From assembly GCF_014236795.1 (NCBI RefSeq), contig NZ_CP049017.1:1342001-1406000 (forward strand): a stretch of 64,000 nucleotides of DNA. The letters run 5' to 3'. The translations under genes and the position numbers were made by a program. The notes beneath the pieces were generated by a model. It was not told the origin of the DNA. It was given only the letters and a program-made list of their open reading frames with translations, and made no database searches. Of the stretch, positions 29,503-63,457 are shown piece after piece. Source of the stretch: Xanthomonas theicola. GTDB lineage: Bacteria; Pseudomonadota; Gammaproteobacteria; Xanthomonadales; Xanthomonadaceae. Each line of letters starts with the position of its first letter. The stretch's first letter is position 1.

Positions 29503-30216
29503 TCAGAGCTTCCCTTTCATCGACCGGTAATCCCGCGGCGTCATCCCGACCGTGGCCTTGAACTGGCGCGCGAACGCGCTCTGGTCGGCGAAGCCGCACG
29601 CCTGGCCGATGCTGGCGATGCTGTCCTGGCTGTGCAGCAGGCGCATCGCCGCCTCGATGCGCATCTTGGTCAGCAACTGCTGCGGGGTCAGCTGGAACAC
29701 GCGGCGGAAGTGCCGCTCCAACTGCGCCACCGACAGTTCCGCCAGGTCGGCCAGGGTCTGCACGCGCAGGTTGTCGCCGTAGCGCGACTGCATATGCTCC
29801 ATCGCGCGGCTGATGCGTTCGTAGGCCGAGTGGCGGCTGTCGGGCTGGCCCAGGTCGCGGGAGATGCCGACCACGCCGATCACTTCGTCCTGTTCGCACA
29901 GCGGACGCTTGAAGGTCAGGCACCAGCCCGGGGTGCGGTTCGGGAACAGATGCACTTCCAACTGGTTCTCGATCATCTCCCCGCACAGCACGCGCCGGTC
30001 CTGCATCAGGTAGCTGCCGCCCAGCGGCAGCGGGAATACTTCCAGCGCCGACTTGCCGATCAGGTCGGCGCGGTACTTCTTGCCCAGGCGCCGCACCAGG
30101 GTCAGGTTGACGTGGGTGTAGCGGCCGTCGCGGTCCTTGACGAAGAACACCACGTCCGGCAGCGCATCGAACAGCGTCTGCATTTCCAGTGCCGAAATCA
30201 AGGTATCCATCTGCAC
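29503..30216 (-). CDS. PAS-domain AraC-family transcriptional regulator
   Basis: A 237-residue regulator (start at 30216 or 30210). Residues about 12-125 form a PAS-like sensor (LFDALPDVVFFVKDRDGRYT, DLIGKSALEVFPLPLGGSYL). Residues about 135-235 are an AraC DNA-binding domain with two helix-turn-helices (VQTLADLAELSVAQLERHFR, SIASIGQACGFADQSAFARQ, FKATVGMTPRDYR). It is divergent from the hydroxyproline operon with 168 nt between start codons, so it is the likely activator of that operon, probably responding to hydroxyproline or an intermediate. The ligand is inferred from context. Confidence 0.88.
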   Translation of the reverse strand: MQMDTLISALEMQTLFDALPDVVFFVKDRDGRYTHVNLTLVRRLGKKYRADLIGKSALEVFPLPLGGSYLMQDRRVLCGEMIENQLEVHLFPNRTPGWCLTFKRPLCEQDEVIGVVGISRDLGQPDSRHSAYERISRAMEHMQSRYGDNLRVQTLADLAELSVAQLERHFRRVFQLTPQQLLTKMRIEAAMRLLHSQDSIASIGQACGFADQSAFARQFKATVGMTPRDYRSMKGKL

Positions 30217-30314
30217 TCACCGGGCGGTTGCGGGCGGCTGCGGCGAGCACGCCGCGGCGTGCCCCCATGCTGCGATCCTAGCCTAAATCAAGGCTCGCCA
30301 GACGAACGGGGTTG

Positions 30315-30328
30315 TGCGAATTTCCGCA
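30315..30328. promoter_or_regulatory. Near-palindrome in the hydroxyproline operon promoter region
   Basis: TGCGAATTTCCGCA lies 57 nt before the epimerase start, in the divergent promoter region with the AraC gene. It also contains CGAAT-N6-ATTCG (30317-30332). Two closely related 14-mers lie upstream of the Tat hydrolase (47029) and the intact TonB receptor (49539). It may be a common operator; this rests on sequence similarity and position only. Confidence 0.45.
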
Positions 30329-30384
30329 TTCGTGACAGACAAACGCTGCTAGCCGGCGGCGGGCGGGAATGTGAGCATGGATCC

Positions 30385-60839: not shown

Positions 60840-60992
60840 GCGGCGCGCCGCCGGCGCCATTCGGCACAAATCCGCATGCCAGCGCGGTGCGACCGACAAG
60901 ACCGGGCGACGCATCGGTGACACAGTGCCGGGACGCAGCTCCAGCGCGGCGGCGGTCGGTTGCCGCGCTGGAGCCAGCGCAAAGGAGACGCC

Positions 60993-61052
60993 ATGCCTGG
61001 TTTCGTATCCCGTCTGGTCTTCGCTGCCACCGGCCCGCGTGGCGCCCGATGA
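60993..61052 (+). CDS. 19-codon leader frame overlapping the GH127 start
   Basis: ATG 60993 is preceded by a good ribosome-binding site (AAAGGAGACGCC) and encodes MPGFVSRLVFAATGPRGAR, ending with a TGA that overlaps the GH127 start as ATGA at 61049-61052. The GH127 start has no clear ribosome-binding site of its own, so this short frame could couple its translation. It could also be chance. Confidence 0.4.
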   Translation: MPGFVSRLVFAATGPRGAR

Positions 61053-63457
61053 ATTGCGGTCGCGACCACCGGCACTCGGCGCAGTGCGCGTCCGCCGCCG
61101 CGGCCGCCGCGGCGCTGGATCCATCGCGGCGCCGCTTCCTGCAATGGAGCGCGCTGGCGGCGGCGGCCGGGCTGCTGCGCTTCCCGCTGGACGCGGCCGC
61201 GTCCAGCGCCGGCCGCGTGCGCGCGTTGCCGCTGCAGCAGGTCACGCTGAAGCCGTCGCTGTTCCTGGACTCGCTGCAGACCAACCGCCGCTACCTGCTG
61301 GAGCTGGAACCGGACCGGCTGCTGCACAATTTCCTGCAGTACGCCGGGCTGCCGGCCAAGGGCGCGGTCTATGGCGGCTGGGAAGGCGACACCATCGCCG
61401 GGCACACGCTGGGCCACTATCTCAGCGCGCTGGCGAAGATGCACGCGCAGACCCGCGACGCCGAACTGCGCCAGCGCATCGACTACATCGTCGCCGAACT
61501 GGCGCGCGCGCAGGCGCAGGATGCGGACGGCTATGTCGGCGGCTTCACCCGCAAGAACGACAACGGCCAGATCGAAGGCGGCAAGGCGGTCATGGAGGAC
61601 CTGCGCCGCGGCATCATCAAGGGCAGCAAGTTCAACCTCAACGGCAGCTGGTCGCCGCTGTACACCCAGCACAAGCTGTTCGCGGGGCTGCTGGACGTGC
61701 ACGCGCTGGCCTGCAACGCCCAGGCGCTGGTGGTGCTGGTGCCGGTGGCCGGCTATTTCGCCGGCGTGTTCGACGCGCTCGACCACGCGCAGATGCAGAC
61801 CTTGCTGGATACCGAGTTCGGCGGCCTCAACGAGTCCTACATCGAACTGGGCGCGCGCACCGGCCAGGCGCGCTGGGTCGCGGTCGGCAAGCGCCTGCGC
61901 CACGACAAGGTGATCGATCCGGCGGCGGCCGGGCGCGATGCGCTGCCGCATCTCCACGCCAACACCCAGGTGCCCAAGTTCATTGGCGAGGCGCGCCAGT
62001 TCGAGGTCGCCGGCGATGCCGACGCGGCCGCCGCCGCGCGCTTCTTTTGGGAAACGGTGACCGCGCACTACAGCTACGTGATCGGCGGCAACGCCGACCG
62101 CGAGTACTTCCAGGAGCCGGACAGCATCGCCGCGTTCCTGACCGAGCAGACCTGCGAGCACTGCAACAGCTACAACATGCTCAAGCTGACCCGGCACCTG
62201 TACCAGTGGACGCCGCAGGCGCGCTATTTCGACTACTACGAGCGCACCCTGTACAACCATACGATGGCCGCGCAGCATCCGGCCACCGGCATGTTCACCT
62301 ACATGACGCCGATGATCGGCGGCGGCGAGCGCGGCTTCTCCGACAAGTTCGATTCGTTCTGGTGCTGCGTCGGCAGCGGCATGGAGGCGCACGCGCAGTT
62401 CGGCGACTCGATCTACTGGCAGGACGCGGCGGCGCTGTACGTGAACCTGTACATTCCTTCGACCCTGGACTGGCCCGAGCGCGACCTGGCGCTGGAACTG
62501 GACAGCGGCGTGCCGGACAACGGCAAGGTGCGGCTGCAGCTGCGCCGCGCCGGCGCACGGACCCCGCGGCGCCTGCTGCTGCGGTTGCCGGCCTGGTGCC
62601 AGGGCGGCTACACGCTGCGCCTCAACGGCAAGGCCCTGCGCGGCGCGGTGGCCGACGGCTACCTGGCGCTGGAGCGCGCCTGGCGCAGCGGCGACGTGAT
62701 CGAACTGGAGCTGGCGGCACCGCTGCGGCTGGAACACGCCGCCGGCGATCCGGACACGGTAGTGGTGATGCGCGGCCCGCTGGCGCTGGCCGCCGACCTC
62801 GGCCCGGTCGCCGGCGCCTACGACGCGCCGGACCCGGCGCTGGTGGCGTCGGCCGATCCGCTGGCCGGGTTCTCGGAACTGCCGCAGCCCGGGCACTTCC
62901 TGGCCGCCGGCACGCAGCCGCCGGGGCTGACCTTCGTGCCGTTCTACGCGCAGTACGAGCGCCGCAGCGCGCTGTACTTCAAGCGCATGGCGCCAGCGCA
63001 ATGGGCGCAGGAAGCGGTGCGGCGTGCGCGCCAGCAGGCCGAGCGCGCCGCGCTGCAGGCCAGCGCAGTGGACATGATCCAGTTCGGCGACGCGGCCTCC
63101 GAGCAGGCGCACCAGTTGCGCAGCGACACCTCGTTCGGCGGCGCCTACCGCCGCCAGCAGTGCCGCGACGTGCGCGGCAAGGGCTTCGTCGAATTCCAGA
63201 TGCAGGGCAGCGCGCGGCCCCTGGCGCTGCGCCTGCGCTTCTGGGGCAGCGACAAGGGGCGCTTCAACATCCTGGTCGACGGCAAGCTGGCGGTGGAAGT
63301 GCAGGTGGAGCGCGGCCAGGTGATCGACTTCGTCGACCGCGACTACCCGCTGCCGCCCGCGCTGACCCGTGATGCAGCGCGGCTGACGATCCGCATCGAG
63401 CCGCAGCACGGCGACACCGCCGGGCCGCTGTTCGGTGGCTGGCTGATCCCGGCCTGA
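61049..63457 (+). CDS. GH127 (DUF1680) beta-L-arabinofuranosidase-like protein
   Basis: An 802-residue Tat-exported enzyme (RRRFLQWSALAAAAGLLRF). GH127 members hydrolyse beta-L-arabinofuranosides such as those on extensin hydroxyproline. Family motifs are YGGWEGDTIAGHTLGHYLSA, ADGYVGGFTRKNDNGQIEGG, YTQHKLFAGLLDVHALACNA, LTEQTCEHCNSYNMLKLTRH and SFWCCVGSGMEAHAQFGDSI; the cysteines in TCEHC and FWCC correspond to the zinc-bound set that includes the nucleophile. A C-terminal beta-sandwich part follows. The start at 61049 gives a long basic n-region before the twin arginines. The frame is intact. Confidence 0.85.
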   Translation: MNCGRDHRHSAQCASAAAAAAALDPSRRRFLQWSALAAAAGLLRFPLDAAASSAGRVRALPLQQVTLKPSLFLDSLQTNRRYLLELEPDRLLHNFLQYAGLPAKGAVYGGWEGDTIAGHTLGHYLSALAKMHAQTRDAELRQRIDYIVAELARAQAQDADGYVGGFTRKNDNGQIEGGKAVMEDLRRGIIKGSKFNLNGSWSPLYTQHKLFAGLLDVHALACNAQALVVLVPVAGYFAGVFDALDHAQMQTLLDTEFGGLNESYIELGARTGQARWVAVGKRLRHDKVIDPAAAGRDALPHLHANTQVPKFIGEARQFEVAGDADAAAAARFFWETVTAHYSYVIGGNADREYFQEPDSIAAFLTEQTCEHCNSYNMLKLTRHLYQWTPQARYFDYYERTLYNHTMAAQHPATGMFTYMTPMIGGGERGFSDKFDSFWCCVGSGMEAHAQFGDSIYWQDAAALYVNLYIPSTLDWPERDLALELDSGVPDNGKVRLQLRRAGARTPRRLLLRLPAWCQGGYTLRLNGKALRGAVADGYLALERAWRSGDVIELELAAPLRLEHAAGDPDTVVVMRGPLALAADLGPVAGAYDAPDPALVASADPLAGFSELPQPGHFLAAGTQPPGLTFVPFYAQYERRSALYFKRMAPAQWAQEAVRRARQQAERAALQASAVDMIQFGDAASEQAHQLRSDTSFGGAYRRQQCRDVRGKGFVEFQMQGSARPLALRLRFWGSDKGRFNILVDGKLAVEVQVERGQVIDFVDRDYPLPPALTRDAARLTIRIEPQHGDTAGPLFGGWLIPA

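What the first reader, a model, noticed from the sequence alone, without database searches (positions are those of the whole stretch)
29503..63457. Possible dedicated system for hydroxyproline-rich plant glycoproteins
The window places together a GH127-type beta-L-arabinofuranosidase, a second exported hydrolase and TonB receptors, DPP IV-like, M24 and DUF885 peptidases, an amino-acid permease, and every enzyme from hydroxyproline to 2-oxoglutarate. Extensins carry beta-linked L-arabinofuranose on hydroxyproline. The combination suggests complete use of the glycoprotein: deglycosylation, peptide trimming, uptake and catabolism. Each step is a known family; the full linkage at one locus is what may be new.
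Basis: inference. Interest (0 to 1): 0.7.

Follow-up and report, generated by a model that had tools for sequence, protein, structure and literature searches.

The report
Conserved locus for eating plant extensins
Bacteria of the Xanthomonas group keep, side by side, genes that probably strip arabinose from hydroxyproline-rich plant cell-wall proteins, cut up the protein and burn its hydroxyproline; the copy in this particular genome is partly in ruins.

Summary
The gene set is real: AraC/PAS regulator; hydroxyproline (Hyp) epimerase, three-part dehydrogenase, deaminase and ALDH; M24, DUF885 and S9 peptidases; permease; an exported 791-aa protein of no known family; TonB receptor; exported beta-L-arabinofuranosidase. 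Corrections: the last is GH146-like, not GH127. The locus also holds GH121 fragments, a split Svx gene and a broken second TonB receptor; GH43 (present in 19 of 19 congeners) is absent from the window and the second S9 is a scrap. 'Complete use' therefore fails for this genome.

Linkage is beyond chance. Epimerase and GH146 lie 29-40 kb apart on one strand in 20 of 20 genomes of the genus (clade-1 Xanthomonas, this one included), are linked in 9 of 12 assessable other-genus genomes of the family, and in 5 of 6 more of the order. L-arabinose isomerase: 0 of 20. Limits: 0 of 3 sampled alphaproteobacteria with both genes (chosen centre left out) are linked, and many Hyp operons lack the glycosidase.

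Best reading: a locus for eating the Hyp-rich backbone of extensin-type proteins, deglycosylation being the opening step. That would answer a question left open in 2018: why Xanthomonas euvesicatoria, which cannot use arabinose, keeps these enzymes. Function is untested.

The parts
29503..30216 (-). AraC-type regulator with PAS domain, divergent from the Hyp operon (likely the Hyp-responsive regulator; inferred)
   Evidence: HTH_18/HTH_AraC and PAS_4; found in 33 of 33 fetched epimerase regions
30388..31326 (+). 4-hydroxyproline 2-epimerase
   Evidence: NF010577 454.6 bits, cut-off 442; best PDB match 4juu 542 bits, an X. campestris enzyme per PMC4113996 (passage)
31323..32423 (+). FAD (DAO-type) subunit of D-Hyp dehydrogenase, LhpB-like (name recalled)
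   Evidence: PF01266 215.6 bits
32423..32668 (+). 2Fe-2S subunit, LhpF-like (name recalled)
   Evidence: PF13510 Fer2_4 79.7 bits
32661..34010 (+). Pyridine-nucleotide oxidoreductase subunit, LhpE-like (name recalled); start chosen by eye
   Evidence: PF07992 98 bits; soxA-like
34007..34912 (+). DHDPS-family enzyme, presumed pyrroline-4-hydroxy-2-carboxylate deaminase
   Evidence: PF00701 203.2 bits; no equivalog model passes its cut-off
34914..36506 (+). Aldehyde dehydrogenase, presumed 2-oxoglutarate semialdehyde dehydrogenase
   Evidence: PF00171 135.3 bits; best PDB match 1eyy aldehyde dehydrogenase
36503..37711 (+). M24 (prolidase/aminopeptidase P type) peptidase
   Evidence: PF00557 + PF01321
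38496..40328 (+). DUF885 peptidase-like protein with signal-like N-terminus
   Evidence: PF05960 526.9 bits; start chosen by eye
40341..42029 (+). APC amino-acid permease
   Evidence: PF13520 153.6 bits
42142..44472 (+). Exported DPP IV-like S9 prolyl peptidase (S9a)
   Evidence: PF00930 + PF00326; start and signal-like N-terminus by eye
45011..46250 (+). IS3-type insertion element with imperfect 35-nt terminal inverted repeats
   Evidence: rve transposase ORF 45688-46224; arms 45011-45045/46216-46250
46445..46657 (+). Scrap of a GH35/DUF5597 gene that 12 of the 28 other linked genomes show near this place (G004 only a 105-aa C-terminal piece, G108 in two pieces)
   Evidence: 71 aa, 44% to the G003 protein (counts); GH35 identified
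47122..49497 (+). Tat-exported 791-aa protein of no known family, proposed glycosidase of Hyp-glycopeptides
   Evidence: No Pfam/NCBIfam/PDB match; 1613 homologues at E <= 0.001 among 8000 scored candidates; PF07944 or GH121 match in 57 of 71 named loci
49815..52667 (+). TonB-dependent receptor, intact
   Evidence: Plug + barrel
52876..54688 (+). GH121 beta-L-arabinobiosidase (HypBA2 homologue), broken: four pieces, three frames, second half missing
   Evidence: NF041578 382.7 bits, far below its cut-off of 3200; tblastn with the G001 homologue
55821..57707 (+). Svx/AvrXca (DUF6055) gene in two same-frame ORFs separated by a stop; pieces scanned apart, not read through
   Evidence: NF040510 on 55821-56495 (329.2 bits) and 56499-57707 (680.6 bits)
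58237..60824 (+). Second TonB-dependent receptor, N-terminal part missing and one frame change
   Evidence: tblastn with the G003 homologue: residues 185-825 in frame 1, 813-1046 in frame 3
61049..63457 (+). Tat-exported GH146-type beta-L-arabinofuranosidase, intact
   Evidence: PF07944 412.4 bits; 5opj 419.8 bits with Glu/Cys and CC positions aligned; open translation

Best explanation
It is an inherited catabolic locus for hydroxyproline-rich plant glycoproteins (extensin type). Proposed order: secreted GH43 and GH121 trim Ara4/Ara3-Hyp, GH146 takes the last beta-Araf off Hyp, and the exported 791-aa protein acts on a further linkage (inferred). Exported S9 and DUF885 peptidases and M24 cut the exposed Hyp/Pro-rich backbone. 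TonB receptors and the APC permease bring in peptides and Hyp. Epimerase, three-subunit D-Hyp dehydrogenase, deaminase and ALDH turn Hyp into 2-oxoglutarate, under the divergent AraC/PAS regulator. The carbon and nitrogen prize is the protein, not the arabinose. In this genome the outer deglycosylation part is decaying while the Hyp core is intact. Shown: gene families, order, conservation, decay. From the literature: activities of the X. euvesicatoria GH146/GH121/GH43 enzymes. Inferred: substrate, order of steps, regulation, role of the 791-aa protein.
For: Gene content. Linkage in 20 of 20 genomes of the genus, own included, 28.9-40.3 kb, same strand; 9 of 12 assessable other-genus genomes of the family (13 with both genes, 1 too fragmented); 5 of 5 genomes of family f12 with both (12.5-15.3 kb). 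Compact forms: G046, G047 (20.6, 21.5 kb, without the 791-aa gene), Luteibacter L129 with no gap over 400 bp in the part held. A differently built Hyp module with another epimerase family (NF010578, 525 bits, cut-off 376) beside GH146-type, GH43 and GH127-type genes, TonB receptor, M24 and DUF885 in Asticcacaulis L130. Co-occurrence in 149 family genomes: both 19, epimerase only 9, GH only 3, neither 118 (counted by me). The X. euvesicatoria GH146/GH121/GH43 enzymes degrade Ara1-4-Hyp in vitro (PMC6085000; PMC10850190). AraA_N (PF02610) in 0 of 20 genomes of the genus.
Against: No growth, induction or enzyme data for the locus as a whole. In the class of Sphingomonas L128, 0 of 3 genomes with both genes (centre excluded) are linked; G026, G030 (other contigs), G082 and G179 (110 kb) are not linked either. 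The Hyp epimerase often lives without the glycosidase: 9 of 28 family genomes, 8 of 13 f12 genomes. G046 and G047 lack the 791-aa gene and L110, L120 lack a GH146 match. Of 16 Acidobacteriota loci with the 791-aa gene, 1 has two or more Hyp-pathway genes in reach and 8 have PF07944. ftsY lies upstream in 26 of 33 epimerase regions, so shared descent explains part of the conservation. X. euvesicatoria xehyp deletions had no disease phenotype, and its authors think the genes may be disappearing (PMC6085000). One control gene only (gltX). Deaminase and ALDH are assigned by family and place only.
Confidence: 0.72

Rival explanations
1. Two unrelated modules (Hyp/proline-peptide catabolism and an arabinoside cluster) that happen to be neighbours and stay so by general synteny.
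For: ftsY lies upstream in 26 of 33 fetched epimerase regions, so the neighbourhood is old; not linked in G026, G030, G082, G179 and in 3 of 3 sampled alphaproteobacteria with both genes, centre left out.
Against: gltX, 10.1 kb from the epimerase here, is at least 109 kb away or on another contig in 32 of 32 other genomes examined, though a rearrangement in this genome would look the same. Compact and re-ordered forms in other families and in alphaproteobacteria.
Confidence: 0.13
2. Sugar scavenging: the GH part serves arabinose release from extensin, arabinan or AGP, the Hyp part serves any Hyp source.
For: In bifidobacteria the homologues feed arabinose use (PMC6085000; PMC7263609); GH146 BT0349 acts on arabinan-derived oligosaccharides (PMC10850190).
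Against: L-arabinose isomerase family in 0 of 20 genomes of the genus, while the control rings in 5 of 14 well-known genomes; X. euvesicatoria cannot use L-arabinose (PMC6085000). Oxidative arabinose routes were not searched.
Confidence: 0.08
3. Loosening of the plant wall or of HRGP-based defence rather than feeding.
For: xehypBA2-AA is HrpX-regulated and induced in planta (PMC6085000); an Svx/AvrXca gene sits in the locus.
Against: Single and triple deletions stayed pathogenic (PMC6085000); the locus is also in Rhodanobacter, Dyella, Luteibacter and Pseudoxanthomonas records; the PIP-box pattern occurs once in the window, outside the locus, at chance level.
Confidence: 0.07

Closest known systems
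XeHyp enzymes of Xanthomonas euvesicatoria (XCV2724 GH146, XCV2729 GH121, XCV2728 GH43; PMC6085000: Discussion in full, other passages)
   Same: Same enzyme set; in relatives of the window genome the order GH121-GH43-(S9)-...-GH146 holds; decay and a nearby prolyl peptidase were already noted there
   Different: The words catabol-, epimerase and racemase do not occur in its text, so the neighbouring Hyp operon is not discussed; it leaves the purpose open. In this window GH43 is absent and GH121 broken. XCV2724 itself was not compared; the window GH146 is 57.5% identical to the second GH146 of G016 and 56-58% to those of the Xanthomonas of genus g17
Bifidobacterium longum HypBA1/HypBA2/HypAA cluster (PMC7263609, PMC10850190; passages read)
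   Same: Deglycosylates Ara3/Ara4-Hyp of HRGPs with GH127/GH121/GH43
   Different: Coupled to import of the arabinose disaccharide; no Hyp catabolism is described with it in the passages I read
HypR regulons with secreted collagenases and prolidases in Shewanella and other Alteromonadales (PMC5343134; passages read)
   Same: Joins protein breakdown, prolidases and Hyp catabolism, there for collagen
   Different: Joined as a regulon by the GntR regulator HypR; no glycosidase is named in the passages read; here an AraC/PAS regulator and plant-type arabinosidases in one locus
LhpBEF-type Hyp pathway operon of Pseudomonas (recalled)
   Same: Epimerase, three-part dehydrogenase, DHDPS-type deaminase, ALDH, AraC regulator (recalled)
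   Different: No linked arabinosidases or TonB receptors are known to me (recalled, not searched)
Latescibacteria (WS3) predicted HRGP degradation (PMC4454575; 12 of 20 passages read)
   Same: beta-L-arabinofuranosidase and peptidases proposed for extensin
   Different: Genome-wide inventory aimed at arabinose use; the passages read claim no linked Hyp catabolism

Membership tests
GH146 beta-L-arabinofuranosidase | PF07944 catalytic domain | tested here: met
   412.4 bits
GH146 beta-L-arabinofuranosidase | Closer to GH146 structures (5opj, 8k7x) than to GH127 (3wkw) | tested here: met
   419.8, 175.4 and 51.2 bits; family of 5opj and 3wkw recalled, 8k7x GH146 structure fits PMC10850190
GH146 beta-L-arabinofuranosidase | Zn-site Glu/Cys and vicinal Cys pair | tested here: met
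   Seen in the alignment with 5opj; residue roles from PMC10850190 (passage)
GH146 beta-L-arabinofuranosidase | Activity on Araf-beta-Hyp | not testable with these tools
   Reported for XeHypBA1 and Bll4HypBA1 (PMC10850190)
4-hydroxyproline catabolic operon (Lhp type) | 4-Hyp epimerase over curated cut-off | tested here: met
   454.6 vs 442 bits
4-hydroxyproline catabolic operon (Lhp type) | DAO + 2Fe-2S + pyridine-nucleotide oxidoreductase subunits side by side | tested here: met
   all three kept in 32 of 33 fetched epimerase regions, G030 being the exception
4-hydroxyproline catabolic operon (Lhp type) | Deaminase and 2-oxoglutarate semialdehyde dehydrogenase identified as such | tested here: inconclusive
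   Family level only, no equivalog over cut-off
HRGP-arabinoside (XeHyp) cluster | Intact GH121 and GH43 | tested here: not met
   GH121 in four pieces, GH43 without a match in the window; each has one long match in 19 of 19 other genomes of the genus
HypR regulon | GntR-type HypR regulator | tested here: not met
   The adjacent regulator is AraC/PAS
TonB-type nutrient utilisation locus | TonB receptor + degradative enzymes + inner-membrane transporter + regulator together | tested here: met
TonB-type nutrient utilisation locus | Joint induction by the substrate | not testable with these tools
   No expression data
Any known glycoside hydrolase family (791-aa protein) | Match to a curated domain or solved structure | tested here: not met

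The most novel reading that the evidence does not exclude
Bacteria of several families eat extensin-type plant proteins through a dedicated, inherited locus in which arabinose removal serves access to hydroxyproline, and the 791-aa Tat-exported protein is the founding member of a new glycosidase family specific for that glycopeptide.
Probability: 0.45. Interest if true: 0.75.

Novelty: new variant of a known kind. Interest (0 to 1): 0.62.

Why it matters
PMC6085000 asks why X. euvesicatoria, which cannot use L-arabinose and loses no virulence without these enzymes, keeps them. A linked route from Hyp-glycoprotein to 2-oxoglutarate gives a direct, testable answer, names a plant-wall nutrient that bacteria may live on, parallels the collagen-Hyp regulons of Shewanella (PMC5343134), and points to an uncharacterised exported protein family as a likely new glycosidase.

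Tried and rejected
PIP-box scan: one hit in the window, outside the locus, chance level. Literature searches that could have shown the Hyp-operon/arabinosidase link; two returned nothing and no listing or passage that I saw shows it; one search listed 20 of 27 papers; the library lacks most subscription papers and bioRxiv. Rejected: the 'GH127' label; 'complete use' in this genome; 44599-46161(-) as a gene (no family, lies largely over the IS element).
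Full report
WHAT IS THERE. The window is G000:C1:1342001-1406000 of a 4.79-Mb, 2-contig genome. From 29.5 to 44.5 kb: AraC/PAS regulator (-), then on the + strand Hyp epimerase, DAO, Fer2_4 and Pyr_redox subunits, DHDPS-family protein, ALDH, M24, DUF885, APC permease, exported S9. From 45 to 63.5 kb: IS3-type element, 791-aa Tat protein, TonB receptor, GH121 fragments, split Svx, broken TonB receptor, GH146.

CORRECTIONS. The arabinofuranosidase is nearest to 5opj (GH146 BT0349, recalled; 419.8 bits) and far from 3wkw (GH127 HypBA1, recalled; 51.2 bits). 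The X. euvesicatoria enzyme is itself called GH146 and acts mainly on Araf-b1-Hyp (PMC10850190, passage). The genus has two GH146-like types; the window's is 57.5% identical to the second one of G016. So the activity is carried over at that distance.

DECAY IN THIS GENOME. Against relatives' open genes: GH121 survives as four pieces in three frames covering 34-652 of 1410 residues, while each of the 19 other genomes of the genus has one long single-frame match; GH43 has no match in the window but is found in 19 of 19 (the rest of this genome was not searched for it). The second S9 is a 36-residue scrap at 58031-58135; 12 of the 19 hold a full one at 65-100%, and G006, G007, G009, G010, G011, G012 and G014 show only S9a. 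GH35 is a 71-residue scrap at 46445-46657. A 29-residue GH146-like scrap lies at 57978-58064. Svx is two ORFs; longer single ORFs exist in G004 and G010 (634, 638 aa). Missing halves and missing genes are not sequencing slips.

LINKAGE. Genus: epimerase and best PF07944 gene on the same contig and strand, 28.9-40.3 kb, 20 of 20, own genome included. Control: gltX, 10.1 kb from the epimerase here, is on the same contig 109 kb to 4.3 Mb away (linear count) in 15 and on another contig in 4 of the 19 others; in 13 genomes of other genera it is 304 kb to 1.0 Mb away in 4 and on another contig in 9. This is one gene, and a rearrangement in this genome would look the same. Family, 149 genomes: 28 have a strong epimerase (over 350 bits), 22 a strong PF07944 gene (over 300 bits), 19 both; Fisher p 1.8e-14, or 2.4e-10 without the 6 of the own genus (genomes are not independent). 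Of the 13 non-congeners with both, 9 are linked at 18.6-40.8 kb (G020, G035, G046, G047, G061, G081, G108, G133, G154; five genera), 3 are not (G026 and G030 on other contigs, G082 1.76 Mb), G048 is too fragmented. Order, 200 genomes: 20 further genomes with an epimerase over 270 bits went; 7 have PF07944, 6 over 300 bits; 5 of these 6 (all family f12, which holds Rhodanobacter and Luteibacter by matching positions) are linked at 12.5-15.3 kb, G179 is 110 kb apart. Eight of the 13 f12 genomes given have the epimerase without a strong PF07944 gene. Uniform chance of falling within 45 kb is about 2%.

GENE SET KEPT. In 33 fetched epimerase regions (29 linked, 4 not): AraC 33, DHDPS 33, ALDH 33, DAO/FER2/PYR 32 each, M24 31, DUF885 30, S9 30, APC 29, PF07944 29, 791-aa 27, GH121 25 (this window's fragments counted), ftsY upstream 26. 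Some of the four unlinked regions are cut by the stretch held.

OTHER CLASSES. Named loci around the 791-aa gene (71 loci): Luteibacter, Rhodanobacter and Dyella 12 loci, two or more Hyp-pathway genes within reach in 11 (the exception is a 5-kb contig), PF07944 in 10. Three alphaproteobacteria (Stakelama, Sphingomonas, Asticcacaulis) 3 of 3, with changed gene order. In Asticcacaulis L130: a different epimerase family (NF010578, 525 bits, cut-off 376), DHDPS, single DAO, M24, TonB receptor, 791-aa protein, DUF885, GH146-type, GH43 and GH127-type genes within 22 kb. Acidobacteriota 16 loci: 1 with two Hyp genes, 8 with PF07944. Planctomycetota and Verrucomicrobia, one each: none. These loci were found through the 791-aa gene and are not an unbiased sample. 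In an even sample of 289 genomes of the class of L128, 8 have PF07944 over 200 bits, 4 of these a PF05544 gene; the centre is linked (6.4 kb), the other 3 are not (two of the three on different contigs). For the 32 Xanthomonas loci the 10-kb flank is mostly too short to reach the Hyp genes (1 of 32).

READING. The enzymes, their order and the lack of L-arabinose isomerase (0 of 20) favour use of the peptide over the sugar. PMC6085000 (Discussion in full, other passages) says that X. euvesicatoria cannot use L-arabinose and that deletions stay pathogenic, asks why the genes are kept, suggests they are being lost, and mentions a nearby prolyl peptidase; catabol-, epimerase and racemase do not occur in its text. 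PMC5343134 (passages) gives the collagen parallel. My searches found no paper joining the two halves, which covers open-licence PMC only.

THE 791-AA PROTEIN. Tat signal in 26 of 47 scanned members, no other convincing domain; no PDB match by sequence or profile; no similarity to GH121 or to GH146 beyond the Tat signal by hhalign. PF07944 or GH121 match in 57 of 71 named loci, but absent from the compact loci of G046 and G047. Glycosidase is a guess from company and export.

LIMITS. No fold prediction was possible. Sequence scores and gene order, not experiments, carry the functional claims.

Noticed in passing
window 1654-8876 (+): Wadjet-type defence operon: JetA (PF18982), a 237-aa ORF in JetB position (not scanned), SbcC-like ATPase, JetD_C.
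   Followed up: partly
window 55821-57707 (+): Svx/AvrXca-family gene split into two same-frame ORFs by a stop; single long ORFs exist in G004 and G010.
   Followed up: partly
window 10320-11258 (-) and 18586-19602 (+): IS1595-type and DDE_3-type transposases; with gltX only 10 kb from the Hyp locus here and far away in the 19 other genomes of the genus, a rearrangement point probably lies between gltX and the locus.
   Followed up: partly
window 46695-47009 (+): Small ORF with a flagellar rod N-terminal match (PF00460) just upstream of the 791-aa gene; a short ORF sits near the same place in G001, G003, G004 and G010 (not scanned), and that of G016 (L034) matches PF00460 weakly.
   Followed up: no
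window 54900-55800 (+): Frame 54576-55805 reads like the C-terminal end of another TonB receptor by eye; no Pfam match.
   Followed up: no
L072 7577-9331 (G000:C1:1413601-1414704): Another PF07944 gene (about 40% identical to the window GH146) lies about 10 kb downstream of the first; a third is at G000:C1:1581186.
   Followed up: partly
window 18177-18273 (-): Bacterial small SRP RNA (RF00169), inside the mechanically listed ORF 17302-18363.
   Followed up: no
L057 3042-4655 (-), L060 2169-3965 (+): In the compact loci of G046 and G047 an amidohydrolase (PF01979) sits between TonB receptor and GH146; the G046 one weakly matches a Caulobacter-type Xaa-Pro dipeptidase model.
   Followed up: partly
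L130 12187-13227 (-), L060 6508-7542 (-): Ldh_2-family dehydrogenases (a family that includes pyrroline-2-carboxylate reductases, recalled) beside the locus in Asticcacaulis and G047.
   Followed up: no
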